Assembly: GCF_000392615.1 (NCBI RefSeq)
Contig: NZ_KB933398.1
Span: 315,729 to 379,728 of the forward strand
Direction of reading: 5' to 3'
DNA length: 64,000 nt
Origin: Lysinibacillus sphaericus OT4b.31
GTDB lineage: Bacteria; Bacillota; Bacilli; Bacillales_A; Planococcaceae
Below the pieces are notes generated by a model. That model saw nothing but the letters and a program-made list of their open reading frames with translations. It was not told the DNA's origin and did no database searches. Position 1 is the stretch's first letter; each line of letters opens with the position of its first letter. Below are positions 311-16,083 of this stretch, one piece after another. The position numbers were made by a program, and so were the translations under genes.

Positions 311-391
311 GCCGGTGTGGCGGAATTGGCAGACGCGCACGACTCAAAATCGTGTTCCTTTGGAGTGTCGGTTCGACCCCGACCACCGGTA
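311..391 (+). tRNA. tRNA-Leu (anticodon CAA), integration target
   Basis: The acceptor GCCGGTG pairs with CACCGGT, with A as discriminator and no encoded CCA. The anticodon loop CTCAAAA gives CAA, which reads UUG. A class II variable arm is present. The 3' part from 338 is identical to a copy at 16022, so this gene was the attachment site of the element. The integrated DNA restored a complete tRNA, so the gene should still work. Its native terminator now lies about 15.7 kb away at 16112-16157. Confidence 0.95.
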
Positions 392-399
392 TCAATTGA
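338..399 (+). repeat. attL, 62-bp direct repeat in tRNA-Leu
   Basis: The 62 bases from the anticodon stem of tRNA-Leu to eight bases past its end are identical to 16022-16083. Outside this block the sequences diverge (G337 versus T16021, T400 versus A16084). It is the left junction of the element; the exact crossover lies somewhere inside the identical block. Confidence 0.93.
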
Positions 400-412
400 T
401 CGTTAGTTTGAC

Positions 413-444
413 GGCGTTTCATGCGTAAGCATGAGGCGCCTTCT
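413..444 (+). terminator. Hairpin after tRNA-Leu, inside the element
   Basis: Arms 413-424 and 429-440 pair over 12 bp around a GTAA loop, two of the pairs being U-G. A weak T-rich tail (TTCTTGCG) follows. It lies just past attL and could replace the tRNA operon terminator that the insertion pushed away. The poor tail suggests leakage toward int. Confidence 0.55.
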
Positions 445-458
445 TGCGTTTATAGACG

Positions 459-489
459 TACAATGTGCGACAAATTAGTCGTTAGCATG
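459..489 (+). repeat. Putative integrase arm-type site, left
   Basis: TACAATGT, CAAATTA and TTAGCATG occur here in the same order and nearly the same spacing as at 15965-15997 near the other end (31 versus 33 bp). Direct repeats flanking the core on both arms are what a tyrosine integrase uses as arm sites. This copy starts 60 bp from the attL repeat. Confidence 0.6.
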
Positions 490-498
490 TCCTCTATT

Positions 499-537
499 AG
501 ACCGTTTTCCTTAAACACTAGGGAAGGCGGTCTTTTT
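499..537 (+). terminator. Terminator-like hairpin touching the int start
   Basis: Arms 499-512 and 520-533 form a 14-bp stem, three pairs being U-G, followed by five T residues at 533-537. The int ATG is at 540 and the only purine-rich stretch before it (GGGAAGG) is in the right arm. The hairpin could therefore both stop readthrough from the tRNA operon and mask the int ribosome binding site. Confidence 0.7.
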
Positions 538-539
538 CT

Positions 540-1502
540 ATGTCTAAGCGTAATAACGATTTGGTGGGACGCGAACTCGACATCGTGAGTCGTTCGGTAT
601 CAATGCAGGTGACGACGTTCGATGAAGCGTTAGCAGTGTTCATAAAAGATGCACAACGCAGAGGTTTACGAGAATTTACGATTACGTATTACAAACGCGA
701 ACTAAATCATTTTCGCGCGTTTCTAGTAAACGAAAATCATTCGCTTTTTATTCATGACGTACAGCGGAAACACCTGGAGGAATTAGTTGAGGATATGCAG
801 GATAGAGGATTGCGGACAACTACTATTAACACGAAGCTACGTGCTATTAGAGCGTTTTTTCATTGGTTACTCGAAAATAAATACTTAGCGGTGAATGACC
901 TCGCAAAGTTTCCCCTCGTACGGGATCGTAAGAACAACGTAGAAACATTTACCGTTAAGCAGTTACATGCGCTGTTAAATGCGACGGACAAGCGGACATT
1001 TACAGGACAACGAGACTATACGTTTATGATGCTGCTACTCGAAACTGGAATCCGGCTAAATGAAGCTTGCGGTATTTTAGTAGAGGACGTAAAGCTATCG
1101 GAAGGACTCGTTTTTATTCGTAATACGAAAAATCACTATCACCGCTATGTACCTATCCAGGCGAAGATGAAAGAGCAGCTTAGACGGTATTTGCAAATAA
1201 GAGGTACATGTGAAACCGAAGCATTATTCGTCACACTTGAAGGGTCTGCGATGAAACGTAACTCACTACAGAAAATCGTTGCTCAATACGGCAATAAAGC
1301 GGACATAAAAGGCGTTAGGTGCTCACCTCATACACTACGTCATACGTTTGCAAAGCTATCTGTTATGAATGGCGCTGGCATATTCGAGTTACAAAAGATA
1401 CTCGGCCATTCAACAATGGAGATGGTAAAAACCTATGTAAATCTATTTTCAACGGAGGTTCACGACAAACATCGTGAGTTTAGTCCGTTAAATAATCTTT
1501 AG
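540..1502 (+). CDS. int: Tyrosine recombinase (integrase)
   Basis: This 320-residue phage integrase/XerD-type recombinase should catalyse integration into tRNA-Leu. An N-terminal SAM-like core-binding domain spans about residues 23-110 and the catalytic domain about 135-310. Catalytic residues are visible: Arg172 in TGIRLNE, His264 and Arg267 in HTLRH, His290 in LGHS, and nucleophile Tyr299 in KTYVN. Lys197 is a candidate for the beta-hairpin lysine. The length is typical of the family. The ATG at 540 has a poor ribosome site inside a hairpin arm, and Met22 is an alternative start. Position and orientation just inside attL are normal for a tRNA-integrating element. Readthrough from the tRNA promoter could drive it. 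Confidence 0.93.
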   Translation: MSKRNNDLVGRELDIVSRSVSMQVTTFDEALAVFIKDAQRRGLREFTITYYKRELNHFRAFLVNENHSLFIHDVQRKHLEELVEDMQDRGLRTTTINTKLRAIRAFFHWLLENKYLAVNDLAKFPLVRDRKNNVETFTVKQLHALLNATDKRTFTGQRDYTFMMLLLETGIRLNEACGILVEDVKLSEGLVFIRNTKNHYHRYVPIQAKMKEQLRRYLQIRGTCETEALFVTLEGSAMKRNSLQKIVAQYGNKADIKGVRCSPHTLRHTFAKLSVMNGAGIFELQKILGHSTMEMVKTYVNLFSTEVHDKHREFSPLNNL

Positions 1503-2264
1503 ACAAAAGAAAAAGCCTAGCGTTGGAGCGCTAGACCTTAACTTAACACGATTACACTAATTGCCTGGCAGCGATAGTGTTCACTCACAACTGAATATGA
1601 GCGATGATATGCCTTCATTTTACCTCGAAAAATCGTAAAATGCAAAGGCCCGCTTTCCTATTGTCTTTTTTAGGAACGCTCACTGACGAGAAGCCGTTAA
1701 GCGTCGTTAAAAAACACGTCAGGTTACGCCGAGCCAACGCAGTAAATTCGGCTAGGACACAATATGCGAGTTCCTTGTTTCTCGTAGTGTCTGAATGTGG
1801 TTGACGCACATAATCGGTCAGGAGTGGAAGGTCTGAATGGTTACGGTCATGCAGAATACACGATACATTGTAATTATTGCCGAGTTCCTCATAACAGTAG
1901 GATAAGCATTTATGATACATACAAAGGGTGTGTAGACGGATTACAAGACGTTTCGGGGGCAGAAGTAGAAACTACGTGTATTGATTCGAAAGGATCACGA
2001 TTAAACAAGGGCATACAATACGGATACCTTAATTGAGGATTCATGGAATCGGCTGTCTATGTTAGTTGATTCTTTTTTGAGTCGCTAACGTAGGCAACCG
2101 AAATCAGCGCCAAGCCGTTTTCCTTATCTCGGCTTCATGATGTTAACCAATATCTGAATGTCAATGAAAAATCCATAATAATTCATTTAATAGGAAATAT
2201 TTCTTATAGTATAATAGGTTAAGATGGAATTAATTATTTTTATAGATGGAAGTTGGGGTATTAA
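1503..2264. other. Structured intergenic region without a convincing gene
   Basis: No ORF here has both a good start and recognisable similarity. Overlapping ORFs on both strands (1615-1920 minus, 1797-2036 plus) lack ribosome binding sites. Several hairpins are visible: 1517-1534 (CTAGCG stem, with a T-run for minus-strand transcripts), 1611-1649, and 2051-2099 (see separate entry). A TATAAT box at 2210-2215 probably serves the next gene. The region could encode a small RNA or be recombination debris. Confidence 0.5.
2051..2099 (+). ncRNA. Long hairpin with T-rich loop, possible structured RNA
   Basis: Arms 2051-2065 and 2085-2099 pair over 15 positions with U-G pairs and one mismatch. Inner arms GATTC (2068-2072) and GAGTC (2079-2083) extend the stem around a six-T loop (2073-2078). 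No T-run follows, so it is not a normal terminator. The arms differ mainly by transitions that keep pairing in RNA but not in DNA, which suggests an RNA structure. Function unknown. Confidence 0.4.
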
Positions 2265-3077
2265 ATGATTAAAGAAGTAATAGAAAAAACAGGAAGTCTC
2301 ATCCCGATATTAACAATCGTATTTGGTAGTGTTAGTATTCGGGGTCTATTCGTATCATTTTTTACTTCACTATCTTACGACTCATTTGATATGAGATTAT
2401 TACCAAGAGGTAGATTTGCAGTGATTAAATTTAAAAAAATTATAAGTGTATTTCTGCTTATTATTCCTGTATATTGTGGATTAGCATTCTTATTAGCGTA
2501 TGAAGCGATAATATTTCCCGTGTTTGTTTGGATATTTAGTATAGCTTTCCTTGTAATTACTTTTGGAATTACACTTAGTTATTTAATATCTATATTAGAA
2601 TATATATACATAAAAAGTGATAACTTTAGATGGTTACTTTGGGTAAGGGAAATTTTAGGGAAACTTTCGAAGATTTTTGAAATCAATACTAAAGCCAAAG
2701 TTTATATAATATTTACTTTTCTGCTTCTTTCACTAATAATGTTAGCTTATGGGTATTTTGCTGATGTTAAAATAATATTAACTAGCCTAACAGAATACTT
2801 AATAACAATGATAGGGGTATCTTTTTTATTCATATACTCAATAAAACCCGATACTAGACCTGTTGAATACATCTTTATTGAAGAAGATGATAATTTAGAC
2901 GAATTATTAGAAAAGTATTCTGTGAAAAAAGAACTGAAATTAGAATACTTTTTGTCAGATTCAATAGCCGTTTTTTCAACTAAAGATAAAGAAGATAAAG
3001 AAGAATATAAAGTGATTAAACGAATATCTGAACCAAAAAGTATATTTGAGGTATATAAAGCTTTAAAGAGTGATTAA
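2265..3077 (+). CDS. Multi-pass membrane protein of unknown function, element cargo
   Basis: I do not recognise a family. The 270-residue product has hydrophobic segments at about residues 11-33, 59-80, 84-112, 146-165 and 171-193, then a charged, probably cytoplasmic tail (about 200-270) rich in Glu, Lys and Asp. The gene is much more AT-rich than the capsid genes of the same element. It stands alone between int and the repressor with its own TATAAT (2210-2215) and a terminator at 3081-3118. That layout resembles accessory genes of prophages and satellites, some of which are anti-phage membrane proteins; that role is a guess from position only. Confidence 0.75.
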   Translation: MIKEVIEKTGSLIPILTIVFGSVSIRGLFVSFFTSLSYDSFDMRLLPRGRFAVIKFKKIISVFLLIIPVYCGLAFLLAYEAIIFPVFVWIFSIAFLVITFGITLSYLISILEYIYIKSDNFRWLLWVREILGKLSKIFEINTKAKVYIIFTFLLLSLIMLAYGYFADVKIILTSLTEYLITMIGVSFLFIYSIKPDTRPVEYIFIEEDDNLDELLEKYSVKKELKLEYFLSDSIAVFSTKDKEDKEEYKVIKRISEPKSIFEVYKALKSD

Positions 3078-3080
3078 AAT

Positions 3081-3118
3081 AAGGAGCGCCTAGCTGTGAT
3101 GCTAGAGCGCTTTTCCTT
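3081..3118. terminator. Bidirectional terminator between convergent genes
   Basis: Stem CTAGC/GCTAG (3090-3094, 3101-3105) extends through a bulged A into GCGC/GCGC and AAGG/TTTT pairs, followed by T-rich sequence. It lies between the membrane protein (plus) and the XRE repressor (minus), whose stop is at 3122. Confidence 0.75.
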
Positions 3119-3121
3119 ATG

Positions 3122-3319
3122 TTATTTTTTCATTTTAAAATCAATGACTAGTTCCAAATTCAATACTTCTGCAATCTTTTCAAGATCTGAAACAGTATAA
3201 CTTTCGTTCTTCATTTTCTTAGATAAATTAGATTGAGTTGTATCCATCTTTTTAGCTAATTGTGTTGCAGTCATTTCGTTTTCTACTAGAAGTAATTTAA
3301 TTTTCTTTGTGATATTCAT
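3122..3319 (-). CDS. Small XRE-family repressor
   Basis: The 65-residue protein is essentially one Cro/C1 helix-turn-helix: the turn and recognition helix are in TQLAKKMDTTQSNLSKK (about residues 19-35). The minus-strand ribosome site AAAGGATGG precedes the ATG. It is divergent from the gene at 3461, and the intergenic region carries inverted ATTCAT/ATGAAT repeats. The expected role is immunity repressor controlling its own and the divergent promoter. It has no LexA-type protease domain, so SOS self-cleavage is not expected; induction would need an antirepressor, as in many satellites. Confidence 0.85.
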   Translation of the reverse strand: MNITKKIKLLLVENEMTATQLAKKMDTTQSNLSKKMKNESYTVSDLEKIAEVLNLELVIDFKMKK

Positions 3320-3344
3320 TTATATACCATCCTTTTATGTATTG

Positions 3345-3425
3345 TTAGAAATAATATATCATATTTTATGAATTTAATTCATATTTTATGTTGACTTAGT
3401 CATATTATTCATTTATTATGAATTT
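3345..3425. promoter_or_regulatory. Divergent promoter and operator region of the repressor
   Basis: A strong rightward promoter is visible: TTGACT at 3391-3396, 17 bp, TATTAT at 3414-3419. CATATTTTATG occurs twice (about 3360 and 3380), interleaved with ATTCAT/ATGAAT inverted repeats, and ATGAAT recurs at 3418. This fits cooperative binding of the XRE repressor over both promoters. Confidence 0.7.
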
Positions 3426-3460
3426 AAGGAATAAATAATGAGTGAGTGGGGGGCTGTATT

Positions 3461-3718
3461 ATGTTTACACAAATGCAAATCGTTGAAGTTGAGCCAGGGT
3501 ATAGTTACGTAGTGGAAAGAACTCAGATTTTGGACGGAGTACATTTAGAGGTATTCAGACAGCCGGGATACGCTGACGATGCAATCTTGTATCTCGGTGA
3601 TAATGAAATATTGTTCGCATGGGATGAAGAAGTTGCTAAACTTTTCTCTGAATTGGATACCGCAGAACCTATCGAATTACTAGCAATCCTAGCGCAAGTA
3701 CCGAAAGTATTAGCTTAA
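3461..3718 (+). CDS. Hypothetical acidic protein under the repressed promoter
   Basis: I do not recognise it. The 85-residue product is acidic and contains no clear helix-turn-helix. The ATG at 3461 is chosen because GAGTGGGGGG precedes it; an in-frame ATG at 3446 has no ribosome site. It is the only gene between the repressor-controlled promoter at 3391-3419 and the terminator at 3849-3876, so it is probably the first protein made on derepression. An antirepressor, Cro-like or helper-sensing role is possible, but only position supports this. Confidence 0.7.
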   Translation: MFTQMQIVEVEPGYSYVVERTQILDGVHLEVFRQPGYADDAILYLGDNEILFAWDEEVAKLFSELDTAEPIELLAILAQVPKVLA

Positions 3719-3848
3719 ACCGAATCATACTCGCGTCAACGAGTCGAGTCGTCCGTTTTGCTGCCAACATTACGGACAATGCTAGAGTCAGCGCCAACTG
3801 GCTTTAGCGTATGAATACGAAGGATCATTGCGCCAACGATGGTCAAAG

Positions 3849-3876
3849 AAAGCTAGGAGTTGGCGCTCCTAGCTTT
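3849..3876. terminator. Perfect bidirectional terminator
   Basis: Eleven perfect base pairs (3849-3859 with 3866-3876) with TTGGCG as loop side, and T-rich flanks on both strands. It separates converging genes (3461-3718 plus, 3881-4249 minus). It has no G-U pairs, unlike the one-way hairpins in the virion operon. Confidence 0.8.
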
Positions 3877-3880
3877 CATT

Positions 3881-4249
3881 TTAGTACCCATCACAATCTT
3901 TATCTAAATCAATTACTATTTCTTGACCTAGAATTTTAAACTTTAATTTACCGGTTAAGCAAAGTTCGCTTTTTTCAATATCATTAATAACATCGCCTTC
4001 TAATTTTGCTTTTACTTTTACGCCTTCATACTCAAATTCGACTGTAACATTTGTTATACGCTTACTGGGTTCCGTTAGACCAATTGTATCTCTATGCCAA
4101 TCTCCTAAATCATTATATATCAAGAATTCAATGGCATCATCTTTTCGTTCGGCTTTGATACTAAGGATTTTACCGAAATTAATATTATCTGACCCTTTAT
4201 TACCTGTTTTCCCTATATTATCAAACGAACCATTGTTTACATCTGTCAT
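3881..4249 (-). CDS. Hypothetical soluble protein
   Basis: I do not recognise a family. The 122-residue product has no signal peptide or membrane segment. After a Gly/Asn-rich N-terminus (residues 1-25) it is dominated by alternating hydrophobic/charged stretches that look like beta strands, and it ends with an acidic DLDKDCDGY. A good minus-strand ribosome site (AAAAAAGGAGTGATAA) precedes the ATG. It is transcribed alone against the surrounding element genes and is AT-rich, so it is likely an accessory gene. Confidence 0.75.
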   Translation of the reverse strand: MTDVNNGSFDNIGKTGNKGSDNINFGKILSIKAERKDDAIEFLIYNDLGDWHRDTIGLTEPSKRITNVTVEFEYEGVKVKAKLEGDVINDIEKSELCLTGKLKFKILGQEIVIDLDKDCDGY

Positions 4250-4387
4250 ATATTTATCACTCCTTTTTTATTATTATCTGCAAGTTAGTGCCTATATATA
4301 CAAAAGGCTAAAGATTCTTTCGTGTCTTGTTTTGCTAATCTGCTTCGTTAATTTAATAGCAGCAATTGTAATAACATTCTTGACGTA

Positions 4388-5009
4388 ATAGTAGAACACA
4401 TTATTTTACCTTTAGATGGCTGCCTAATTAGCGCCGAAGTATAGTAGGTAATAGTGTTTTATCATGAACGGATTAGAACGGCTGAATCGACGGTAAAACA
4501 GAGATAATTTATCGAGGGGAATTTTTAAATGTTTTTGCTGATAACTTGTCTCAAAAAGGAATTTTGTTCGGGTATAGATAGTAGGGAAGTTTATCTCCTT
4601 AATTTCGCCTTTATAAACGTGGCTAAGAACGGCTTTATATCGCAAGTAGACGTATTTATCATGCGAAGGCTAGAACGCCTAAAACAAAGGAGAATTGAAC
4701 GTTTAAGTCAGTAGGAATAAATATTTCCGAAAACTTGTCCCAAAATAGGACGTTTTAGTGTGCAGTATATAGTAGAACGAAATTTTTCAAAAGTGATATC
4801 AAATTCAAATTTTACCGGGCAGTAAGTAGTAGGAAGAAAATTATCAGAAACATGTCCGAAACTGGTTTTTCGTTCGGGTATACAAAGTAGTGGCAAACTT
4901 TTTATTCAAATAGTGTTAACGAAATTAAATTTTACTCGCGAATATATAGTAGCAAGTTTTTCTTGAAAAGTGTTAACAGATTTTATTTTTACCGAGCATT
5001 ATACAGTAG
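4388..5009 (+). repeat. About ten degenerate repeats with 57-65 bp period upstream of rep
   Basis: The core TATA-N2-AGTAG (variants included) recurs with AGTAG near 4390, 4443, 4580, 4645, 4710, 4771, 4825, 4886, 4948 and 5005. From 4580 on the spacing is 54-65 bp. Between cores, TGTCC or TGTTAAC, T-rich AATTTTAC blocks and A-rich tails recur in the same order. No gene is convincing in 4250-5067. The array directly precedes a Rep-like gene, so an origin or a multi-site operator is the likeliest reading. Confidence 0.6.
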
Positions 5010-5067
5010 AGGCAATCCCGTCGAGCAGTCGGCGTTCAACCAATAATCAGCTAAAGGAGACGATTTT

Positions 5068-5556
5068 ATGACGGAACAAGCAACGCAAACAATTGATATC
5101 CAAAAGGTATTACCGTTTAAGTATGATGCAGGTTGGACAGGCGTCCCTAACTCTATATTCGAAATTTATTCGTTTCATCCTAAGTTTACAGGGGCAACGA
5201 TGCTTGTTTACTTGTTCCTATTACACCGCCACAACCATAAAGAAGGCTACGCGTGGCCGACGCATGACCAAATAGCAGATGCAGTATGTATTAGTCGGAC
5301 CACGGTTGGTTCATCAATTAGGGCTTTAAAGGAATTAGATTTAATTTTAGTTGAGCGCAATCCCACTCACAGCAACGATGTGTACTTCATTAAACGTCCT
5401 ATTGCTGACCGCTCTACATTTGAGCGCAAATTTCCGGAGGCATTAGAGAAAAGAATTAAGCATGAACAATCGCGTCTGTTAGATATTCAACAGCGCCGTG
5501 ATCGAAAAGAGAAGTTTGAGGCTAAACGTAGGGCAGCGAAGCAAGGTCTTTTGTGA
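5068..5556 (+). CDS. Winged-helix replication-initiator-like protein
   Basis: The 162-residue protein has a winged helix-turn-helix of the HTH_36 type at about residues 50-115; the segment WPTHDQIADAVCISRTTVG holds the turn and recognition helix. This domain forms the N-terminus of many phage and plasmid replication proteins (RepA, DnaD-like, phage O). A long basic, coiled tail follows (about 120-162, repeated Arg/Lys/Gln). There is no helicase or primase domain, so host enzymes would be recruited. Ribosome site AAAGGAGACG precedes the ATG. A repeat array lies immediately upstream and 14-bp iterons immediately downstream, which supports replication initiation. A transcriptional regulator is the alternative. 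Confidence 0.7.
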   Translation: MTEQATQTIDIQKVLPFKYDAGWTGVPNSIFEIYSFHPKFTGATMLVYLFLLHRHNHKEGYAWPTHDQIADAVCISRTTVGSSIRALKELDLILVERNPTHSNDVYFIKRPIADRSTFERKFPEALEKRIKHEQSRLLDIQQRRDRKEKFEAKRRAAKQGLL

Positions 5557-5654: not shown

Positions 5655-5658
5655 CATT

Positions 5659-7385: not shown

Positions 7386-7850
7386 ATGACAGACGAAACA
7401 ACAGTACAGCCGGAACAAGAAGTAATTGAGGCACAAGAAGCCGAACAACCGACAGAGCAAACGGAAATTGACGAGTTACGAGCGCAGGTAGCCGAGTATG
7501 AAGCGTTAAAAGCGCAATTGGCAGAGCAAGAGGCAACTCAAAAAGCCGAGATATTAGCGCAGAAGGTCGAACAGTCTGGCGTTAAAGACTTCGATAAATT
7601 ACAACCGTTCCTAGACGCTGCGAAGCTAGACGGTGACGCACTCGACGAACTCCTGGGAATCTTGCAGGGAATGAAGCCAAAACCAGCGCCAATCGGATCG
7701 GCAACAAATGGTGGTAGTGGAGAAAAGACAGCTCAACAGATTGTACTCGCAGAAGCAGAGGCAAAAGCCAGACGCACGGGCACAGTCGAAGATATTGCAG
7801 CATTCAGCGGATTAAAACAAAAAATTAAACAATTTGGGGGACGACGATAA
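7386..7850 (+). CDS. Phage scaffold-like protein
   Basis: The 154-residue, Glu/Gln/Ala-rich protein has a long helical, coiled-coil-like region (about residues 8-62, e.g. IDELRAQVAEYEALKAQLAE), a linker at about 100-110 and a basic helical tail ending in KQKIKQFGGRR. This is the build of internal scaffolding proteins, whose basic C-terminus binds the capsid protein during procapsid assembly. Its stop overlaps the capsid start (TAATG at 7848-7852), so the two are translationally coupled, as is usual for scaffold-capsid pairs. Ribosome site AAAGGAGG precedes the ATG. No head protease is encoded nearby. Confidence 0.8.
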   Translation: MTDETTVQPEQEVIEAQEAEQPTEQTEIDELRAQVAEYEALKAQLAEQEATQKAEILAQKVEQSGVKDFDKLQPFLDAAKLDGDALDELLGILQGMKPKPAPIGSATNGGSGEKTAQQIVLAEAEAKARRTGTVEDIAAFSGLKQKIKQFGGRR

Positions 7851-8944: not shown

Positions 8945-8954
8945 CAATTTCCAA

Positions 8955-8988
8955 GAGGCTTGCGATTAATTTCGCAGGCTTCTTTTTT
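8955..8988 (+). terminator. G-U-containing hairpin after the capsid gene
   Basis: Ten pairs between 8955-8964 and 8973-8982, two of them G-U, then six T residues (8983-8988). The fibre ribosome site starts about 22 bases later, which leaves no room for a normal promoter, so the fibre gene likely depends on readthrough. Confidence 0.75.
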
Positions 8989-9023: not shown

Positions 9024-9935
9024 ATGGCGAACTTTTACACACTATTAACACCGATAGGACTTGCGAAGGTTACTAACGCACAAATAACGCAAAGTAAAGT
9101 GGCAATATCGCATATTGCGGTAGGCGACTCGAATGGAACGAATTATCCACCGACAGGCAACGAAACAGCGCTCAAGAAAGAGAAATGGCGAGGTGGCGTA
9201 TCAAGCGTTGCTGTCGACGCGGCTAATCCGAATTGGATTGTCGTTGAAGCGATTCTGCCTGCGACAGTTGGTGGATTTACCCTCCGCGAAGTAGCGTTAT
9301 ACGACGAAGTTGGCGACATGATTGCAATCGGTAACTATCCGGATACGTACAAGCCGGTGGCTAGCGATGGTTCGACGATGGACTTGTTGCTACGAACAAT
9401 TATTGAGGTTAGTAACGCAGATAGCGTCACATTAAAGATTGATCCGAACGTTATTGTTGCAAGTCGTAAATATGTAGACGATAAAATAGCGCCAATTCAG
9501 GGGCAAATTACGGACCATGCGGCTAAAAGCGCTAGTGCAGCACATGGAAAAATTTGTAAAGAATACATGTTGTTTCAAGGCGCCTTGGCTACTGGAAGTG
9601 CTACCTTGTCTATGCCTGCAGGATTTGCGACGCTAAGCGATTTTGATGAAATTATCATTTCTGGGACAATGAACAATACATCGTCATCAACTTGGAAGCA
9701 TTTTTGTCAACGGATTGATATACAAAATGTAGGAGAAACATTTGCAGTATCAGAATCTTATGAAATCCTTTACTCATCTACTGCTACCTCAGATGTGTTT
9801 TGGTTAAAAGCTAATTTAAATAAAACTTTAAATACTTTAGACGTTGTATATAACAGGAAAAAAGTAGGTGCAAATAACGGTATCGATGTGACAGAAAACC
9901 TTATAGGTGTGGTGGTAGGTGTTAGATATGAGTAA
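9024..9935 (+). CDS. Tail-collar-type tail fibre (DUF3751-like)
   Basis: Residues 1-160 match the phage tail-collar fibre N-terminal domain found in P2-type fibre proteins: FYTLLTPIGLAKVTNAQ, the VGDSNGTNYPPTGNETAL segment and GGFTLREVALYDEVGDMIAIGNYPDTYKP. The C-terminal 125 residues (from about 175) look unrelated and are visibly more AT-rich, as expected for a swapped receptor-binding tip. Ribosome site CGGAGG precedes the ATG. The N-terminal domain normally attaches to a contractile-tail baseplate, yet no baseplate is encoded here, so attachment to a helper's tail is inferred. No fibre-assembly chaperone gene follows. Confidence 0.85.
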   Translation: MANFYTLLTPIGLAKVTNAQITQSKVAISHIAVGDSNGTNYPPTGNETALKKEKWRGGVSSVAVDAANPNWIVVEAILPATVGGFTLREVALYDEVGDMIAIGNYPDTYKPVASDGSTMDLLLRTIIEVSNADSVTLKIDPNVIVASRKYVDDKIAPIQGQITDHAAKSASAAHGKICKEYMLFQGALATGSATLSMPAGFATLSDFDEIIISGTMNNTSSSTWKHFCQRIDIQNVGETFAVSESYEILYSSTATSDVFWLKANLNKTLNTLDVVYNRKKVGANNGIDVTENLIGVVVGVRYE

Positions 9936-10034: not shown

Positions 10035-10072
10035 AAGGCATGACGTTTTCTAAACAAGCGTTGTGCCTTTTT
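10035..10072 (+). terminator. G-U-containing hairpin after the fibre gene
   Basis: Eleven pairs between 10035-10045 and 10059-10069, two of them wobble, then T-rich sequence through 10072. The next ribosome site (GGGGGAAG) begins about 16 bases later. Confidence 0.75.
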
Positions 10073-10100: not shown

Positions 10101-10436
10101 ATGAAACTAGTTAAACGTAAGCAGGAAATAACGCAATTACTAGACGATAACGAAGTGATACTTGCTGCAGCTAAGTTTGTAGTTGAAGTTGAACGCCTTC
10201 ACGGAAAAGTGCCGCAATTTAAGGTCAAACAGGCAACCGATTTAAAAGTACCACTATCAGCTATAGCAATGAGTGGCCGAATACAAGCTAATCATGCTCG
10301 CAAACGATTAGAGGCGCTGAATGCAGCGATCGAATATGCAAATGGTGATAGGAGCGCACGCAAGCGATACATTGCAGCCAGCCAACAAGCCGATCGTTTA
10401 GCAGACATAGTGGCAAAGAGAGTTGACAGAATCTAA
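10101..10436 (+). CDS. Hypothetical protein coupled to the tape measure gene
   Basis: The 111-residue, mostly helical, basic protein has no recognised domain. Its stop overlaps the tape measure ATG (TAATG at 10434-10438), so the pair is translationally coupled. In siphoviruses and myoviruses the gene before the tape measure is a tail-assembly chaperone; the position fits, but the sequence does not show the usual features and there is no sign of the frameshift such chaperones use. The assignment remains open. Confidence 0.65.
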   Translation: MKLVKRKQEITQLLDDNEVILAAAKFVVEVERLHGKVPQFKVKQATDLKVPLSAIAMSGRIQANHARKRLEALNAAIEYANGDRSARKRYIAASQQADRLADIVAKRVDRI

Positions 10437-12898
10437 TGACTATTAATCTAACGGCAGTTTTCAGAATGAGGGACCAGGGATCGTCACGTATGCGCCAATT
10501 AACGCAGATGATGGAGCGAATGAATCGGACAAGTAGAGCGGCAGGTGAGTCGGTAAGTCGATCTCAAACAGCAGTAAATAGGTTTGGTAGCGCTGTATCT
10601 TCAACGTCAAATCGTATGAGTGGATTTTCTACTCGTATGACAGGCTTACGTGCGGGGACTAACGGGCTTAGTGCAAGTTTTAGTGGAATGCAAAGTGCGC
10701 TAGTCGGGATAGCTTCGGCATATTTAGGTGCTCAAGGTGCTGCAAAAGCGTTTGATGCAACCATTGGCGCAGCAGCAAGGTATCAACAGTCAGAAGTTGC
10801 AGTAAAAGCTATTTTTAATGATGACAAAAAGTCCAATGCGTACATGAAGATGGTTGATAAAATGGCGATCGATAGCCCACTACTTAACAGTACGGACATG
10901 CTTGCCTCGTCAAAATCGCTTGTTTCAATGACTAAAAACGTTGATGACTTAGGTAAGGCATGGTCGATTATCGAGCGACTTATGGTGCTTGACCCTACGC
11001 AAGGTACAGATGGGGCAGCTTTTAGTTTGAAGGAGCTTTGGCAGGGAGATTCTCAGTCGATGGTTGAGCGTTTTGGGCTTGATAGGCAAAAACTTAATGA
11101 TATTAAGAAGATGGCTATCCCACAACAAATTGCAGAGATTAATAAAATGCTAGACGGTATGGGAATTACGCAGAAAACCGTAGACGCAATGGGTAAGACA
11201 ACTCTTGGCTATTGGGCACAAATTGGAGAGCGAGTCGGAAAGTTCATGCGGCAAATCGGAAATATGGGTAACTCTAAACTAGGTGCTTCATTAGGTGGCA
11301 TCGTTAAAATGTTTGACAATTCTGAGAGTGCTTTAAATTCATTGGCTGCCAAATTAGACGCCAAACTTGCTAGTATCGTGGACAAAGCAATCTCTTTCGG
11401 AAAATTCGTATGGAAATGGCGTGAACCTATTGCATATACCATTGGAGCGTTAGCCGCAGCACTAGGCGCATTTGCAGTCGTAGGTGTCATTGCAGCTCTA
11501 GCGAATCCAATCTCTTTAATCGCCGCTGGAATCGCATCTGCAGTAGTTGGATTTAAAGCACTTTACGACAATAGCAAGTTAGTTAGAGGAGTCATAGACG
11601 GTATTGGTACTGCATTTGACGCAATTTCGAAAATATTTAATGGTGAACACAGAGCAGCAATAGATTTACTTGAATCGACAGGATTAAATCCGAAACAGGT
11701 AGATTTGATTAGAAAGTTCGGTTACTCACTAAAAGAAGCTGTCGGCAATATTAAAGGAACATTTCAAAGTATCTCTCACATTTTTAACGGGCAACACAAA
11801 GCTGCTATCGACGTACTAAAGAGCGCTGGATTTTCGACAGAACAAGCAAATCAGGTACGTAAGTTTGGCTATAGGTTGAAATCGGCATTTGACGTTGTCC
11901 GCGAGGTACTTAATGGTGTAGGTACGCTTTTAACTGGCGGAGGTTCTACTGATTTAGCAGCAGCGCTAGGTATGTCGCCTGAAACGGCAACAAAAGTAGA
12001 CGGATTTATCAAAAACGTCTATGACAACATTGTCAGTTTCGTGAACTTCACTAAAACGAAATTCGAGGAATTTAAGACGTACATTTCTGAAAAAATAACG
12101 CAGATACAACCTGTCTTTGAACGACTAAAAGAAGCATTTTCGCAAGCCTTTACGACGATAGGTTCGATTATATCAAATGCTTGGTCGATTATTGAACCTT
12201 ACCTAAGTGGATTCTGGAATCTCCTTCAAATTCTCGGAGATATTGCGGTAATTGTATTTAATAACGTTATTGCCCCATCTATTTCGTTCACCACACAACT
12301 ATTCTCGACTTTATGGACTATTGCACAGCCTATTCTTAGCGCATTAGCAGTAGGATTTGAGCTACTCTCCGAAGTAATTAAATGGTTATGGGATAACGTA
12401 CTAGCTCCGCTAGTTGAGTTTATCTTAACCGGCGTTAAAAACGCGTTCGATACTTTTTCAGAAGTGTTATCAGCCGTGCAAGGATGGTTCGAAACATTAA
12501 GCGGTTGGATATCGACGGCATACGGCCACGTTAAGGATTTCGCAAGCTTTATTAGTTCCGTAAAGATGCCGGACTGGATTACGAACGGAATTAGCGCAGG
12601 GGTAAACTTCGTCGGGGGATTAATCGGTGCTGGAGACAAAGGCGGTAAGAAATCTCACTATAGCGGACTAGATTCTGTCCCTTACGACGGTTATTCGGCA
12701 AGGCTTCACAAAGGGGAGCGTGTGCTTACTTCGCGCGAAAATAAGGAATATTCGCAAGGTAATGGAGGATCATCTAATGGAGCGATTACTATCGCTAAAT
12801 TGGCGGACAGTATCATTGTTCGTGAGGATGCGGACATTGACCGAATTGCAGATGGACTTGTAACGAAAATACTAGAGAGACGTGGGGTGACGGCATGA
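10436..12898 (+). CDS. Tail tape measure protein
   Basis: The 820-residue protein has tape measure features: a helical N-terminus with repeated MxxRMxR heptads (1-60), a conserved middle region (about 95-290), two hydrophobic helices (about 330-385) and a long helical C-terminus. Two similar units occur around residues 400-470, FNGEHRAAIDLLESTG and FNGQHKAAIDVLKSAG, each followed by IRKFGY/VRKFGY. Tape measures set tail length, at roughly 0.15 nm per residue in known cases, implying about 120 nm. It stands without tube, sheath or chaperone genes. Its stop overlaps a five-codon remnant of another ORF (12895-12912). A satellite tape measure could redirect the length of helper tails; that is inference. 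Confidence 0.9.
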   Translation: MTINLTAVFRMRDQGSSRMRQLTQMMERMNRTSRAAGESVSRSQTAVNRFGSAVSSTSNRMSGFSTRMTGLRAGTNGLSASFSGMQSALVGIASAYLGAQGAAKAFDATIGAAARYQQSEVAVKAIFNDDKKSNAYMKMVDKMAIDSPLLNSTDMLASSKSLVSMTKNVDDLGKAWSIIERLMVLDPTQGTDGAAFSLKELWQGDSQSMVERFGLDRQKLNDIKKMAIPQQIAEINKMLDGMGITQKTVDAMGKTTLGYWAQIGERVGKFMRQIGNMGNSKLGASLGGIVKMFDNSESALNSLAAKLDAKLASIVDKAISFGKFVWKWREPIAYTIGALAAALGAFAVVGVIAALANPISLIAAGIASAVVGFKALYDNSKLVRGVIDGIGTAFDAISKIFNGEHRAAIDLLESTGLNPKQVDLIRKFGYSLKEAVGNIKGTFQSISHIFNGQHKAAIDVLKSAGFSTEQANQVRKFGYRLKSAFDVVREVLNGVGTLLTGGGSTDLAAALGMSPETATKVDGFIKNVYDNIVSFVNFTKTKFEEFKTYISEKITQIQPVFERLKEAFSQAFTTIGSIISNAWSIIEPYLSGFWNLLQILGDIAVIVFNNVIAPSISFTTQLFSTLWTIAQPILSALAVGFELLSEVIKWLWDNVLAPLVEFILTGVKNAFDTFSEVLSAVQGWFETLSGWISTAYGHVKDFASFISSVKMPDWITNGISAGVNFVGGLIGAGDKGGKKSHYSGLDSVPYDGYSARLHKGERVLTSRENKEYSQGNGGSSNGAITIAKLADSIIVREDADIDRIADGLVTKILERRGVTA

Positions 12899-12912: not shown

Positions 12913-12941
12913 TAGAAAGACCTTCATAACGAATAACAACG

Positions 12942-12977
12942 AGGCAGGCATCGAAATTACAACGGTGCTTGCCTTTT
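12942..12977 (+). terminator. G-U-containing hairpin after the tape measure gene
   Basis: Twelve pairs between 12942-12953 and 12963-12974, two of them wobble, followed by a short T-run. The next ribosome site (GAGGAG, 12994-12999) is only about 17 bases further on. Confidence 0.7.
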
Positions 12978-13005
12978 CTGATAAAACGAAATGAGGAGTG
13001 ACGAA

Positions 13006-13518
13006 ATGAAGCAATCACCAACTATGGAAGAATTAAAAGCGGACATTGAGCGTTTACAAGGTGAGATTGATGCGGCAGATTCTGAGCGAGGTTATTGTAA
13101 AATACCGTTTCCGCCGATTAGCGACGTTTGGGCAGAACAGGTATACAAACGTAATCTAGCAGATATTAAGCCGTTCTTAGCAGACTACGTTGAGTTAGTT
13201 TTAGCAGCAAAGGAAATCGTACCTTTAGGCGAACTAGAACGTGTTAACGATTGGTTAGATGCGCTAAAGGTTGCGAGAGAGGCAAATGATATCGTCTTAG
13301 GGGCTACATGTACGTGCATAGCCGTTTTATTACGTATCGCGACTAATGGTGACAGTAGAATGCACTACGCTAACCTTGCGGATATGATCGTAAGTACCAT
13401 CGAGGAAGTACCTTATTCCGTTTTTTACGAAGATGTCTATAAAGGCGACTATGACGGAAATTATGATAAATACTACGCTGAAAAGCGAGAGGAGCTAATT
13501 AAATGGCACGAAAACTAG
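13006..13518 (+). CDS. Hypothetical protein upstream of TerS
   Basis: I do not recognise it. The 170-residue product begins with a short coiled-coil (MEELKADIERLQGEIDAAD, about residues 7-25), continues as an acidic helical domain and ends in a Tyr/Asp-rich tail (VYKGDYDGNYDKYYAEKREE). The ATG at 13006 is preferred over 12991 because GAGGAG precedes it by 6 bases. Its last 16 bases overlap the TerS-like gene, so the two are coupled and may form one packaging module. A head-tail or TerS-partner role is conceivable but unsupported by sequence. Confidence 0.7.
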   Translation: MKQSPTMEELKADIERLQGEIDAADSERGYCKIPFPPISDVWAEQVYKRNLADIKPFLADYVELVLAAKEIVPLGELERVNDWLDALKVAREANDIVLGATCTCIAVLLRIATNGDSRMHYANLADMIVSTIEEVPYSVFYEDVYKGDYDGNYDKYYAEKREELIKWHEN

Positions 13519-13907: not shown

Positions 13908-14160
13908 ATGGCAATATATCAACGTTTTAGTGCGTTAAAGTGATATAAATGCGAGGTTGGCTACGTGCTGACTTCGCTCTTTTTTTATGCGTTGGAAGAG
14001 CGTTATGATTCCGTTTTATTCCGAAATAAGGTGAAATAATCGGGTGGACGGTGCTGGCGGACGCGCTACCTTGAAAACAAATAGAAGTCTGACAATTCAT
14101 ATCTGCGCAAATTACTAGGTTGGTGCATATAGAAGCGTGTAAATCGCTATGTATTCCATT
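13908..14160 (+). other. Intergenic region after TerS, possible packaging site
   Basis: No ORF is convincing. It contains the terminator at 13951-13987 and a GC-richer stretch near 14040-14075 (GGTGGACGGTGCTGGCGGAC). Packaging sites often lie in or near terS, so a pac or cos site here is possible, but no diagnostic repeat is seen. Confidence 0.3.
13951..13987 (+). terminator. Terminator of the virion operon
   Basis: Eleven pairs between 13951-13961 and 13967-13977, three of them G-U, with loop TACGT, then TC followed by seven T residues. This is the longest T-tract of the series and is followed by real promoters (14179 and 14559), so it probably ends the long virion transcript. Confidence 0.8.
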
Positions 14161-14207
14161 ATCATAACTTTAACAGTATTGACATCTTTTATGAAGAAAT
14201 GTACACT
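14161..14207 (+). promoter_or_regulatory. Promoter with upstream repeat, for the small membrane protein
   Basis: TTGACA (14179-14184), 17 bp, TACACT (14202-14207). The 18 bases upstream (ATCATAACTTTAACAGTA) are repeated almost exactly before the resolvase promoter at 14542-14587, so both promoters likely share an activator or repressor. Confidence 0.7.
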
Positions 14208-14241
14208 AACGATGCAGTATGGTTAATGAGATAGGGGGCAG

Positions 14242-14403
14242 ATGATGGATAACCAATATTTCGTAGGTTGGGGTACATTGGCATTGATAAATGCTGCACT
14301 TGCACAAGGGAAGAATAGAACAGGGTTAAATTGGTTTTTACTTTCTCTTGTATTAGGTCCATTCGCAACACTAATTTTGTTATCTGTTGAAAAGAGACAG
14401 TAA
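14242..14403 (+). CDS. Small membrane protein, 53 residues
   Basis: The gene is too short for most callers but has a promoter (14179-14207), ribosome site AGGGGGCAG and a terminator (14501-14530). The sequence has a hydrophobic N-terminal segment (GWGTLALINAALA), a polar turn GKNRTG and a C-terminal membrane helix (WFLLSLVLGPFATLILL). This pattern matches a widespread family of tiny bacterial membrane proteins with a KGRS...WFLLGLLLGPIALL motif, whose function is unknown. Sharing a promoter motif with the recombinase suggests co-regulation. Confidence 0.75.
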   Translation: MMDNQYFVGWGTLALINAALAQGKNRTGLNWFLLSLVLGPFATLILLSVEKRQ

Positions 14404-14500
14404 CACTACATATTCACAATAATTGATTTAAGTTAATAAAGCGAGAAGCGTGGTAATGTAGACTCTCTCTTATTCAACTATTGGGGCTTTAATAAAAGCG

Positions 14501-14530
14501 TAAGTCGATTATGGCTCGGCTTATTTTTTT
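14501..14530 (+). terminator. Terminator of the small membrane protein gene
   Basis: TAAGTCG (14501-14507) pairs with CGGCTTA (14517-14523), one U-G pair, followed by seven T residues. Confidence 0.7.
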
Positions 14531-14541
14531 ACTTCAATATT

Positions 14542-14587
14542 GTCATAACTTAACAGTATTGACAACGTTTTGCCGATACGATAAGAT
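14542..14587 (+). promoter_or_regulatory. Promoter with upstream repeat, for the serine recombinase
   Basis: TTGACA (14559-14564), 17 bp, TAAGAT (14582-14587). Bases 14542-14564 nearly duplicate 14161-14184 with one base missing. Between this promoter and the gene, TTATCAAAA occurs twice (about 14602 and 14615) and could be recombinase or regulator sites. Confidence 0.7.
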
Positions 14588-14637
14588 AGCCTTATAAACG
14601 TTATCAAAACTTATTATCAAAAGTTAGGGGCGGTATA

Positions 14638-15213
14638 ATGGCTAAATACGGATATGCTCGAGTGTCAACCGTTGCACAAGAATTAGAGTCACAAATTCAG
14701 TCGCTAGAATCGGAAGGCTGTACGATTATCTATAAAGAGAAGTTCACAGGAGCTAAGACGGATAGACCGGTATTTAATGAAGTCATGGCGTTGTTAACGG
14801 AAGGTGATACGTTAGTAGTAACGAAACTAGACCGACTAGCCCGTAACACTAAAGAGGGTATCGATGTTGTCGAGGCGTTATTCGAGCGCGGTGTACGTGT
14901 TCATGTACTTAACGTAGGACTATTAGAGAATACGACAATGGGACGTTTCTTCCTTACTACGTTATTAGCTGTAGCTGAAATGGAACGCAATTTAATCATT
15001 GAACGAACTCAAGAAGGCAAAGCGATTGCTAAGCAGCGAGAGGACTTCCGAGAAGGTAGACCGAAGAAATTTGATAAGAAACACTTAGACAATGCAATGC
15101 AGCTATTGGAATCGAATAGTTATAAAGAAGTCGAAGCAAGGACGGGAATTTCAGTCGCTACATTAGCGCGTGAGAAACGTAAACGAAAAGAACAAGCGAT
15201 TATCAACGATTGA
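14638..15213 (+). CDS. Serine recombinase (resolvase/invertase family)
   Basis: The 191-residue protein is a small serine recombinase. The catalytic domain (1-125) has YARVST with nucleophile Ser10 and Arg8, TGAKTDRP, KLDRLARN and the E-helix region TTLLAVAEMERNLIIERTQEG. A C-terminal helix-turn-helix domain spans about 140-185 (AMQLLESNSYKEVEARTGISVATLAREK). The length is that of a resolvase or Hin-type invertase, not a large serine integrase. It could resolve multimers of the replicating element or invert a segment; no clear inverted crossover sites are seen. Having it beside a tyrosine integrase is unusual for so small an element. Confidence 0.9.
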   Translation: MAKYGYARVSTVAQELESQIQSLESEGCTIIYKEKFTGAKTDRPVFNEVMALLTEGDTLVVTKLDRLARNTKEGIDVVEALFERGVRVHVLNVGLLENTTMGRFFLTTLLAVAEMERNLIIERTQEGKAIAKQREDFREGRPKKFDKKHLDNAMQLLESNSYKEVEARTGISVATLAREKRKRKEQAIIND

Positions 15214-15238
15214 GCGAACGTGCTTGATCGTCATTTTT
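15206..15238 (+). terminator. Terminator overlapping the recombinase stop codon
   Basis: Eleven pairs between 15206-15216 and 15221-15231, three of them G-U, with loop AACG and a following run of six T residues. The stop codon (15211-15213) is inside the left arm. Confidence 0.75.
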
Positions 15239-15571
15239 TGCGTTGAAACTGCGTCACCCCAAAGCCCCTTATTCTGAGAGGCGTCATCTGGTCTTCGAGA
15301 ATTACAGACATCATTTTTAAAACAAGCCGACTTTTGCGCTGTCAGACGCATCGACATTCGCAAAATAAGGTGGTTGTGCGAGTGGTATCGTCTGAGAAAT
15401 GAGTTTCTTCTATTATATATATATGTATTAAAAGCCTGTTTTGCGTCAATGTTGCGTTGATCTTTTACTAACGATTTATAATTGTAGCATAACATGAAAT
15501 GCGGTAAAAAGACTATTCTCATGCGGTTTGTATGCGTGTATACTCCGAATTATGAATAGGAGGAGATACTA
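15214..15571. other. Intergenic region before the putative Xis gene
   Basis: About 350 bp without a supported gene. It contains an alternating TA tract (about 15410-15430) and a TATAAT at 15477-15482 that probably serves the gene at 15572, with TTGCGT (15452-15457) as a weak -35. GCGT/TGCG words are frequent, but no clear repeat emerges. Confidence 0.4.
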
Positions 15572-15877
15572 TTGCTAACACATAATTTAACACCAAGAGA
15601 AGTATTAGATATGATACCTTTAAAAGAACGCGCATTACAAATCTACGCGGAAATGATGTCCGAACGGATACCGACATTTGCTCCCAAGACGACGAAAGGT
15701 AGACGCTATTCAAGAAAAGAAGTTGAGGTATTACTTTATATTTTGCGACGTAAAGATAATGGTTTGACTATTGAAGCGGCGATGGATGAGGCGATGGATA
15801 TATTTTACGATACTACTGAGCGGGATAGAGTATTAGAAGAAGTAAAATCGCTAGTAAATAAGCTATTAGAGACGTAA
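15572..15877 (+). CDS. Putative excisionase/recombination directionality factor
   Basis: The TTG start at 15572 is chosen because AGGAGG lies about 7 bases upstream. The 101-residue protein has a MerR-like segment, GRRYSRKEVEVLLYILRRKDNGLTIEAAMDEAM split over about residues 42-75, resembling the winged DNA-binding fold of small excisionases and satellite regulators. It is the last gene before attR, at the opposite end from int. Location and fold suggest an Xis or an activator. The evidence is a motif and position only; a small phage regulator is equally possible. Confidence 0.6.
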   Translation: MLTHNLTPREVLDMIPLKERALQIYAEMMSERIPTFAPKTTKGRRYSRKEVEVLLYILRRKDNGLTIEAAMDEAMDIFYDTTERDRVLEEVKSLVNKLLET

Positions 15878-15964
15878 GTAAAATTACTTGTTATCGCTTT
15901 ACTTTCCGATAAGCATACCGTAAACTAGCAGTAATAGGAAAACGGTCGTTTACGCATATGGCGA

Positions 15965-15997
15965 TACAATGTCCGTTCAAATTAACGTATTAGCATG
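15965..15997 (+). repeat. Putative integrase arm-type site, right
   Basis: This copy shares TACAATGT, CAAATTA and TTAGCATG with 459-489 in the same orientation. It ends 25 bp before the attR repeat. In the circular form the two copies would flank the core, matching P and P' arm sites. Confidence 0.6.
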
Positions 15998-16021
15998 ACG
16001 GTGAAGGTAACGCACTCTTTT

Positions 16022-16083
16022 CACGACTCAAAATCGTGTTCCTTTGGAGTGTCGGTTCGACCCCGACCACCGGTATCAATTGA
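16022..16083 (+). repeat. attR, 62-bp direct repeat (tRNA-Leu 3' fragment)
   Basis: Identical to 338-399. It contains the tRNA-Leu anticodon arm through the 3' end but lacks the 5' half, so it is not a tRNA gene. It marks the right junction; the original chromosome continues at 16084. Confidence 0.93.

What the first reader, a model, noticed from the sequence alone, without database searches (positions are those of the whole stretch)
338..16083. Compact satellite-like element carrying a mixed set of virion parts but no packaging motor, portal or lysis genes
Seen: intact integrase, att repeats, repressor/operator, Rep-like gene with repeats, and intact genes for scaffold, SU10-type capsid, collar fibre, tape measure and a TerS-like protein. 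Not seen: TerL, portal, protease, connectors, tube/sheath, baseplate, lysis. Known capsid-forming PICIs keep a full head and packaging set, while ordinary PICIs encode at most capsid-size or TerS redirectors. Here one element would replace the helper's head shell, tail length, receptor fibre and DNA recognition, but borrow everything else. I know of no described satellite with this combination; a decayed prophage is the main alternative.
Basis: partly seen in the sequence, partly recalled or inferred. Interest (0 to 1): 0.92.

Follow-up and report, generated by a model that had tools for sequence, protein, structure and literature searches.

The report
Satellite carrying shell and tail ruler
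A 15.7-kb DNA parasite of phages in a Lysinibacillus genome belongs to a family that brings its own virus shell and its own tail-length protein but seems to borrow the DNA-packing motor and the rest of the tail from a helper phage.

Summary
Confirmed. The window (a Lysinibacillus genome) holds an intact 15,684-bp element between perfect 62-bp repeats at tRNA-Leu, with integrase, repressor, Rep, scaffold, SU10-type capsid protein (MCP), collar fibre, tape measure (TMP) and TerS, and no detectable TerL, portal, tube, sheath, baseplate or lysis genes. It is no lone wreck: 20 further loci, from four genera in two families plus IMG/VR, share the scaffold-MCP-TMP core (three with a split TMP frame, two loci identical). 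Satellite MCPs form one clade; 18 satellite scaffolds are 143-180 aa against 200-292 aa in 58 phages. The shell genes are inherited, but the TMP has been exchanged with phages (at least six changes in a satellite-myophage tree), with no consistent shortening. A motif learned from phage TerL-upstream DNA has its best hit in the 64-kb window at 15254-15301, the matching place in several sisters; in phage Lietuvens it contains the physical genome end. Most likely: a motor-stealing satellite that mounts its own small shell on a borrowed portal and a chimeric tail. PLEs (TMP) and cf-PICIs (capsid) each show half of this; I found the combination nowhere in open papers. No experiment exists, and no SU10-type helper was found in this genome.

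The parts
338..399 (.). attL core, 62 bp, overlapping tRNA-Leu (310-393)
   Evidence: perfect direct repeat with 16022-16083
16022..16083 (.). attR core, 62 bp
   Evidence: contiguous empty site at 78-79% in G020 and G022
540..1502 (+). tyrosine integrase
   Evidence: PF00589 2.5e-35; 95% identical in L025 at the same tRNA-Leu
2265..3077 (+). membrane-like protein, probable cargo
   Evidence: no match in Pfam, PHROGs, PADLOC, NCBIfam
3122..3319 (-). Cro/C1-type repressor, divergent
   Evidence: PF13443 1.1e-7; PHROG repressors
3359..3440 (.). operator-like repeats between divergent genes
   Evidence: repeat family D11, 75% alike; function inferred
3446..3718 (+). conserved early protein
   Evidence: homologues in L021, L023, L024
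3881..4249 (-). unknown, probable cargo
   Evidence: no convincing match
4575..5009 (.). iteron-like repeats, probable origin
   Evidence: 5 of the 30 TATANAGTAG-type sites of the 64 kb lie here; families D1, D2
5068..5556 (+). Rep-like winged-helix replication initiator
   Evidence: PHROG replication initiation 3e-8; 85% identical in L021
5761..6537 (+). replication-region protein, unknown
   Evidence: homologues in L026 and L140
6626..6859 (+). HTH regulator upstream of the late module
   Evidence: PF13560 5.5e-9; conserved in L021, L025, L026
6863..7117 (+). small conserved protein before scaffold
   Evidence: cluster 4, five of seven satellites
7386..7850 (+). short scaffold (154 aa)
   Evidence: 80-85% identical in L021-L024; lacks the N-terminal part and an internal stretch of phage scaffolds
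7850..8944 (+). SU10-type major capsid protein (364 aa)
   Evidence: PF17236 3.5e-84; satellite clade
9024..9935 (+). tail-collar fibre, accessory, between two terminator-like hairpins (8953-8984, 10035-10069)
   Evidence: PF12571 2.4e-54; N-terminal part 42-55% identical in 6 of 31 other genus genomes; hairpins
10101..10436 (+). small protein directly before TMP
   Evidence: same position as 99-107-aa ORFs in L021, L022, L025, L026, but W is only 19% identical to L021's; no family
10436..12898 (+). tape-measure protein (820 aa)
   Evidence: phrog_58 6e-29; 75, 62 and 52% identical to three pieces of the G027 myophage TMP
12991..13518 (+). conserved helical protein, overlaps the start of TerS
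   Evidence: homologues in L021, L024, L025, L059, L140; AF2 pLDDT 87, all helices
13503..13907 (+). terminase small subunit
   Evidence: phrog_7344 5e-16, PF13022 1.2e-22; homologues lie near TerL in many full phages
13910..14105 (.). conserved block after TerS, not recognisably coding
   Evidence: 85% to L021, 74% to L025, 70% to L140
14242..14403 (+). small unknown ORF
   Evidence: phrog_9201 6e-6, unknown function
14638..15213 (+). serine resolvase/invertase
   Evidence: PF00239 5.4e-37
15254..15301 (+). packaging-site-like motif (cos/pac candidate)
   Evidence: 20.6 bits with a PWM from 16 phage sites, next best in the window 2.7; 1 of 200 shuffles reaches it
15572..15877 (+). MerR-like small regulator
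   Evidence: PF13411 7e-5; conserved in L021, L022, L024

Best explanation
The element is one member of an old family of phage satellites that encode their own capsid shell and scaffold plus a phage-derived tape-measure protein, and steal the packaging motor, portal, neck and the rest of the tail. Likely cycle: on helper infection or induction the HTH repressor is relieved and the integrase excises the element from tRNA-Leu (inferred from the repeats); Rep starts replication at the iterons (inferred); the short scaffold and the satellite MCP build a small procapsid on the helper's portal (inferred from scaffold length and from 15.7-17.7-kb genomes against about 57-70 kb for the longer phage records); satellite TerS brings helper TerL to the site at 15254-15301 and the genome is packed (inferred from a motif shared with phages); helper tube, sheath and baseplate assemble around the satellite TMP into a chimeric tail (inferred by analogy with V. 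cholerae PLEs). Shown here: gene content, the family, one MCP clade, short scaffolds, purifying selection, repeated TMP exchange, a shared packaging-like motif. Not shown: induction, particles, capsid size, helper identity.
For: 20 further loci with scaffold-MCP-(0.3-1.5 kb)-TMP and no TerL, portal, minor capsid, sheath, tube, wedge, baseplate J, holin or endolysin hit (20 loci; L185). Scaffold 143-180 aa in 18 satellites vs 200-292 in 58 phages; MCP-TMP gap 289-1492 bp in 20 satellites vs 3133-5343 in 42 other loci. MCP tree: 20 satellite and 61 phage MCPs split by one branch, support 100/99. dN/dS of W against L059, L021, L022: MCP 0.10-0.13, scaffold 0.21-0.27; TMP against L022 0.15. TMP tree (15 satellites, 19 myophages): 8 changes, at least 6 on well-supported branches. 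L072/L074: scaffold-MCP-TAC 91% DNA identity over 2.7 kb, TMP 74%, right flank 94%. L070 TMP (1255 aa) is 74% identical to a 1259-aa siphophage TMP and L072 (679 aa) 71% to a 678-aa myophage TMP, while the MCPs of these pairs are 52-56% identical. Packaging-like motif: W's site leads the window by 18 bits; 11 of 21 satellites exceed all 40 of their own shuffles; the identical 437-bp terminal repeats of phage Lietuvens end inside the motif. Seven repeat-bounded satellites are 15.7-17.7 kb.
Against: No particle, induction or transfer data. The SU10-type TerL query found nothing in this genome (an empty search without a positive control in G000), and the one sheath-bearing prophage (contig C12) has no match to the SU10-type MCP, TerL or portal references and a 28% TMP match. 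TerS was not found in L022, L023, L063 nor in the fragments L058 and L060, and is a weak match in L064, L066, L072, L074. Three of 20 TMP frames are split (L022, L058, L060); an intron is likely for L022 but not shown for the others. In L021, L025, L059 and L140 a separate small ORF before the scaffold resembles the N-terminal part of phage scaffolds, so the scaffold may be split rather than simply short there. L058 (and fragment L057) has a gene like Lietuvens ORF12 from the MCP-sheath interval, and L021 a homologue of a 100-aa gene beside the phage minor capsid gene, so 'no neck-region gene' is not true of every member. TMP dN/dS W-L059 is 0.38 and could not be computed for W-L021. The motif is weak or absent in L021, L024/L061, L025, L026 and L059; the PWM is uneven (leave-one-out scores of its 16 phage sites run from -10.7 to 45.3). 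Satellites were defined by lacking TerL and portal.
Confidence: 0.7

Rival explanations
1. Capsid redirector rather than own shell: the satellite MCP co-assembles with helper MCP (as SaPIbov5 Ccm does at pentamers) and the short scaffold tunes size; most of the shell is the helper's.
For: Ccm is a satellite MCP homologue that takes only the pentamers (PMC8569155, passages). MCP lengths are alike (364-366 aa in the 20 satellites, L185 363; 360-366 in phages except L130/L131 with 346), so co-assembly is thinkable.
Against: The satellite MCPs do not follow helper type: L070 (sipho-type TMP) and L072 (myo-type TMP) carry MCPs of one satellite sub-clade, 52-56% identical to those of their nearest TMP phages. 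A scaffold gene accompanies the MCP in the satellites with that region, which Ccm does not need.
Confidence: 0.16
2. The TMP (with TAC-like, hub-like or DUF2577 genes in some copies) is a saboteur or decoy that ties up helper tail parts, not a virion component.
For: Satellite- or bacteria-encoded factors do attack tail assembly (Tai, PMC11364771; Rta, PMC12987554; passages).
Against: Most TMPs are full length (17 of 20 in one frame) and close pairs equal the phage TMP in length; in PLEs the satellite TMP is in the virion and needed for efficient transfer.
Confidence: 0.08
3. Decayed prophage or leftover of an SU10-type phage.
For: All virion genes have phage homologues; remnants are common; three sister TMPs are split.
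Against: One MCP clade with 21 members, 15.7-17.7 kb in seven bounded copies, open frames in W, perfect att repeats, uniformly short scaffolds.
Confidence: 0.03

Closest known systems
Capsid-forming PICIs (cf-PICIs)
   Same: Compact integrated satellite with its own capsid gene and TerS; a sample of cf-PICIs is reported to carry putative tmp genes (PMC12987554, Ext. Data Fig. 10 legend).
   Different: cf-PICIs encode portal, protease, connectors, TerL, TerS and HNH and depend on helpers for tails (PMC10690885 introduction passage). Here portal and TerL are missing. A cf-type SU10 family with TerL and portal lives in the same bacteria (L198 and L200 by profiles, four more by layout).
V. cholerae PLEs
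   Same: Satellite-encoded TMP with TAC and, in some, a hub protein make chimeric contractile tails (PMC12987554, passages). Some satellites here have TAC-like, hub-like or DUF2577 genes near the TMP.
   Different: PLEs remodel the coat protein of phage ICP1 (PMC10945586, start of abstract in listing; that this uses an external scaffold is recalled). Here the satellite brings MCP and scaffold. No PLE sequence was compared.
SaPIbov5 Ccm
   Same: Satellite-encoded MCP homologue that gives small capsids.
   Different: Ccm fills only pentamers, is 24% identical to helper CP and cannot form capsids alone; it is the only SaPIbov5 protein needed (PMC8569155, passages).
SU10-type phages of Bacilli (Sporosarcina phage Lietuvens, the G027 phage)
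   Same: MCP 53-55% and, for G027, TMP pieces 52-75% identical; core of the packaging-like motif.
   Different: Lietuvens 64.5 kb with TerL, portal, tail and lysis genes; phage scaffolds 200-292 aa.

Membership tests
cf-PICI | own major capsid protein | tested here: met
   PF17236 3.5e-84
cf-PICI | own TerL and portal | tested here: not met
   no hit in W; both detected in control islands L198 and L200
cf-PICI | own head-tail connectors | tested here: inconclusive
   no hit to Lietuvens ORF9-ORF13 in W, but these are connectors only by position, and L057/L058 have an ORF12 match
cf-PICI | no tail genes (first definition; tmp later reported in a sample) | tested here: not met
   820-aa TMP and fibre
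classical PICI (SaPI-like) | integrase, divergent repressor, replication module, TerS, about 15 kb at a fixed att site (list recalled) | tested here: met
classical PICI (SaPI-like) | no structural genes beyond size redirectors (recalled) | tested here: not met
   MCP, scaffold, TMP, fibre
PLE | TMP and TAC in all members | tested here: inconclusive
   TMP in all 20 loci by definition; TAC-like gene in 8 of 20, not in W
PLE | homology to PLE proteins | not tested
   no PLE sequence was compared
phage satellite (functional) | mobilised by a helper phage in particles | not testable with these tools
   needs induction and particle sequencing
SU10-type MCP family | PF17236 above the curated cut-off | tested here: met
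   283 bits against 24.1

The most novel reading that the evidence does not exclude
A distinct satellite strategy: an anciently fixed own shell (MCP plus shortened scaffold) and a phage-like packaging site, coupled to a tape measure that works as an exchangeable adaptor, re-taken from successive helpers (contractile or non-contractile), while motor, portal and tail body are stolen. It would mean that one lineage of satellite capsid can be mounted on the portals of both myophages and siphophages.
Probability: 0.6. Interest if true: 0.87.

Novelty: new variant of a known kind. Interest (0 to 1): 0.82.

Why it matters
The satellites I could read about either bend the helper's capsid or bring the whole head and motor. 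This family splits the virion at another place: shell and tail ruler from the satellite, motor and portal from the helper. The contrast between the MCP tree and the TMP tree is a natural experiment on which virion parts must match the helper, and bears on why satellites carry their own tape measure, which the 2026 PLE paper leaves open.

Tried and rejected

Literature: nine of ten searches used, open PMC papers only, no preprints. The cf-PICI paper I looked for by DOI is not held, so cf-PICI features rest on passages in PMC10690885 and PMC12987554. Passages seen: PMC12987554, PMC11364771, PMC10690885, PMC8569155, PMC12409358. Listing with start of abstract only: PMC10945586 and the others in those searches. 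Capsid T-number reasoning was not used.
Full report
WHAT IS THERE. The window is 315729-379728 of contig C1 of a 4.86-Mb genome. A genome of the same genus in the search (G025) holds the same contig stretch as a record named Lysinibacillus sp. FJAT-14745, so the host is a Lysinibacillus. Bases 338-16083 are bounded by perfect 62-bp direct repeats, 15,684 bp apart, the left one overlapping tRNA-Leu. No match to TerL, portal, minor capsid protein, sheath, tube, wedge, baseplate J, holin or endolysin was found. Two of 32 genus genomes (G020, G022) match the joined empty site continuously over 261 of 275 bases at 78-79%, two more (G028, G007) cross the junction for a shorter stretch.

RELATIVES. 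Searches with the MCP covered 151 relatives, 261 family genomes, 398 class genomes at E up to 1e-60, IMG/VR (the best 80 of 148 and of 162 matching loci), phages and plasmids. Reference proteins of phages and satellites were then mapped onto the loci. A locus was called a satellite if it had no TerL or portal hit within 9 kb of the MCP and a TMP starting within 2.5 kb after it. This gave 20 loci (W, L021-L026, L140, L058-L061, L063, L064, L066, L070, L072, L074, L077, L087; L058 and L060 are short fragments, several others end at contig edges, and L024 and L061 are identical in scaffold, MCP and TMP). L185 was found later, and L057 and L071 are fragments with a satellite-type MCP but no complete TMP. 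They come from four genera in two families (g1, g14, g17 of f1; g50 of f29) plus IMG/VR. In the 261 family genomes 8 carry a satellite and 3 a full phage of this MCP type; in the class sample 2 satellites and 9 full phages. The 11 loci new are phage-type and were not put in the trees.

A DISCRETE CLASS. Scaffold length: 143-180 aa in 18 satellites, 200-292 in 58 loci with TerL or portal; fragments with a cut scaffold are outside these counts. MCP-TMP gap: 289-1492 bp in 20, 3133-5343 in 42 (the 2.5-kb rule bounds the first group, but nothing lies between 1.5 and 3.1 kb). MCP tree: 20 distinct satellite MCPs and 61 phage MCPs lie on the two sides of one branch with support 100/99. With five cf-type MCPs as outgroup, 21 satellites are one group nested among the phages (quick tree; the outgroup branch is very long, so the root is uncertain). 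Seven satellites with exact end repeats are 15.7-17.7 kb. Against L059, L021 and L022, W's dN/dS is 0.10-0.13 for MCP and 0.21-0.27 for scaffold; for TMP 0.15 against L022, 0.38 against L059, not computable against L021.

POINTS THAT BLUR THE PICTURE. Three of 20 TMPs are split (L022, L058, L060). In L021, L025, L059 and L140 a separate ORF of about 54 aa before the scaffold resembles the N-terminal part of phage scaffolds; none was recognised in W. L058 and L057 have a gene like Lietuvens ORF12 before the TMP (70% in L058); L021 has a homologue of a 100-aa gene that lies beside the phage minor capsid gene, and 39 codons of the next phage gene (LysM, 82%) after its TMP.

TWO MODULES WITH DIFFERENT HISTORIES. 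In a tree of 15 satellite and 19 myophage TMPs (siphophages, three sipho-type satellites, TMPs under 500 aa and duplicates left out) the satellite label needs 8 changes, at least 6 on well-supported branches; 12 of 500 shuffled labellings do as well. For MCP it needs 1, against a shuffled mean of 18. The cleanest case is L072 and L074 (same IMG genome number): 91% DNA identity over 2.7 kb of scaffold-MCP-TAC, 74% in the TMP, 94% after it. L072's TMP matches a phage TMP better than its sister's (894 against 693 bits; 71%, 679 vs 678 aa); L070's is 74% identical to a siphophage TMP (1255 vs 1259 aa), while MCPs in these pairs are 52-56% identical. W's TMP is 75, 62 and 52% identical to three pieces of the G027 phage TMP, its MCP 55%. 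So the tape measure follows the phages and the shell does not. There is no consistent shortening: close pairs differ by -36 to +21 aa, remote pairs by more. Eight of 20 loci add a TAC-like gene, some DUF2577, L026 a 620-aa tail protein (phrog_400 1.2e-95) that I read as hub-like. W alone has a collar fibre, between two terminator-like hairpins; its N-terminal part is 42-55% identical to genes in 6 of 31 other genus genomes, one of them with a stop.

A SHARED PACKAGING-LIKE SITE. DNA after TerS in several satellites matches the TerS-TerL gap of phages (L021 to L028 74% over 209 bp; L077 to L067 92% over 53 bp). The shared core, seen in those alignments, is CCCCAAG(C/G) followed after about 22 bases by TCTGG or similar. 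Within 1.2 kb before TerL, 19 of 41 phages have the first half. A 48-column PWM from the 16 distinct phage sites scores W 15254-15301 at 20.6 bits; the next best place in the window, both strands, is 2.7, and 1 of 200 dinucleotide shuffles of the element reaches 20.6. The PWM is uneven: leave-one-out scores of its own sites run from -10.7 to 45.3. W's site lies just after the resolvase, as in L025 and L140. Of 21 satellites, 11 (W, L022, L023, L058, L063, L070, L072, L077, L087, L140, L185) beat all 40 of their own block shuffles; in L185 the site lies at the other side of the locus, beside a resolvase. L021 and L025 have the core at the expected place without beating their shuffles (in L025 a minus-strand match scores higher); L024, L061, L059 and L026 have no good site; L060, L064, L066 and L074 end before or near the place. 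In phage Lietuvens the two 437-bp terminal repeats are identical and end at base 437, inside the motif that starts at 407. That makes it a likely terminase cutting site. TerS was found as an ORF in 13 of 20 loci, L061 duplicates L024 and L074 is cut; L022, L023, L063 and the fragments L058, L060 have none; its tree needs 5 label changes.

CONTROL. Fifteen rows are distant MCP matches. Six were fetched as loci L196-L201. They are compact islands with integrase, short scaffold and a 274-293-aa MCP; L198 and L200 were checked by profiles: TerL (PF03237 5.7e-6 and 1.5e-7), portal (PF05133 3.9e-69 and 9.7e-78), and in L198 a holin-like gene. L196, L197, L199 and L201 were judged by ORF layout. That is the cf-PICI plan, and it shows that the search sees TerL and portal where they exist. 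G016 carries one of each kind, its distant MCP match with one stop.

HOW IT MOST LIKELY WORKS. The family brings shell, scaffold, tape measure and mostly TerS with a phage-like site, and must take portal, TerL, neck, tube, sheath and lysis from a helper. The TMP probably seeds chimeric tails, as in PLEs, where deleting tmp cut transduction by 96% (PLE1) and 99% (PLE4) and PLE11 virions contain the satellite TMP (PMC12987554, passages). Why a satellite needs its own TMP is open; escape from anti-TMP factors is one possibility.

LIMITS. No particle or transfer data; no SU10-type helper found in this genome; capped and uneven database sampling; open PMC papers only.

Noticed in passing
L143:18440-18647 and L021:14731-14938: The G018 satellite is bounded by perfect 208-bp repeats that contain a complete cobalamin riboswitch (RF00174), so it has integrated into a riboswitch and leaves one at each end; the ends of L022 (by Rfam) and L059 (by eye) lie in the same kind of site. 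A V. cholerae island, GI-23, inserted in a cobalamin riboswitch is in print (PMC12409358, passage).
   Followed up: partly
L021:2298-2474: A further cobalamin riboswitch lies inside the same satellite.
   Followed up: no
L196-L201: A second compact SU10-type island family in the same bacteria, with TerL and portal (cf-PICI plan; profiles on L198 and L200 only); guaA-like gene beside the integrase in L199 and L200, read from the ORF sequence.
   Followed up: partly
L028:14330-14573 and 16374-16616: Two group I intron-like stretches (below the gathering score) split the TMP gene of the G027 phage; satellite L022 seems to share the second site.
   Followed up: partly
L025:9966-10130: A 54-aa ORF before the scaffold resembles the N-terminal part of phage scaffolds; similar ORF-like stretches precede the scaffold in L059, L021 and L140.
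   Followed up: partly
L026:13158-14081 (-): TIR-domain effector as probable satellite cargo (PADLOC 1.2e-15).
   Followed up: no
G000:C12 (L138, L139): A 33.9-kb contig with a contractile-tail prophage whose integrase is 74% identical to that of satellite L022.
   Followed up: no
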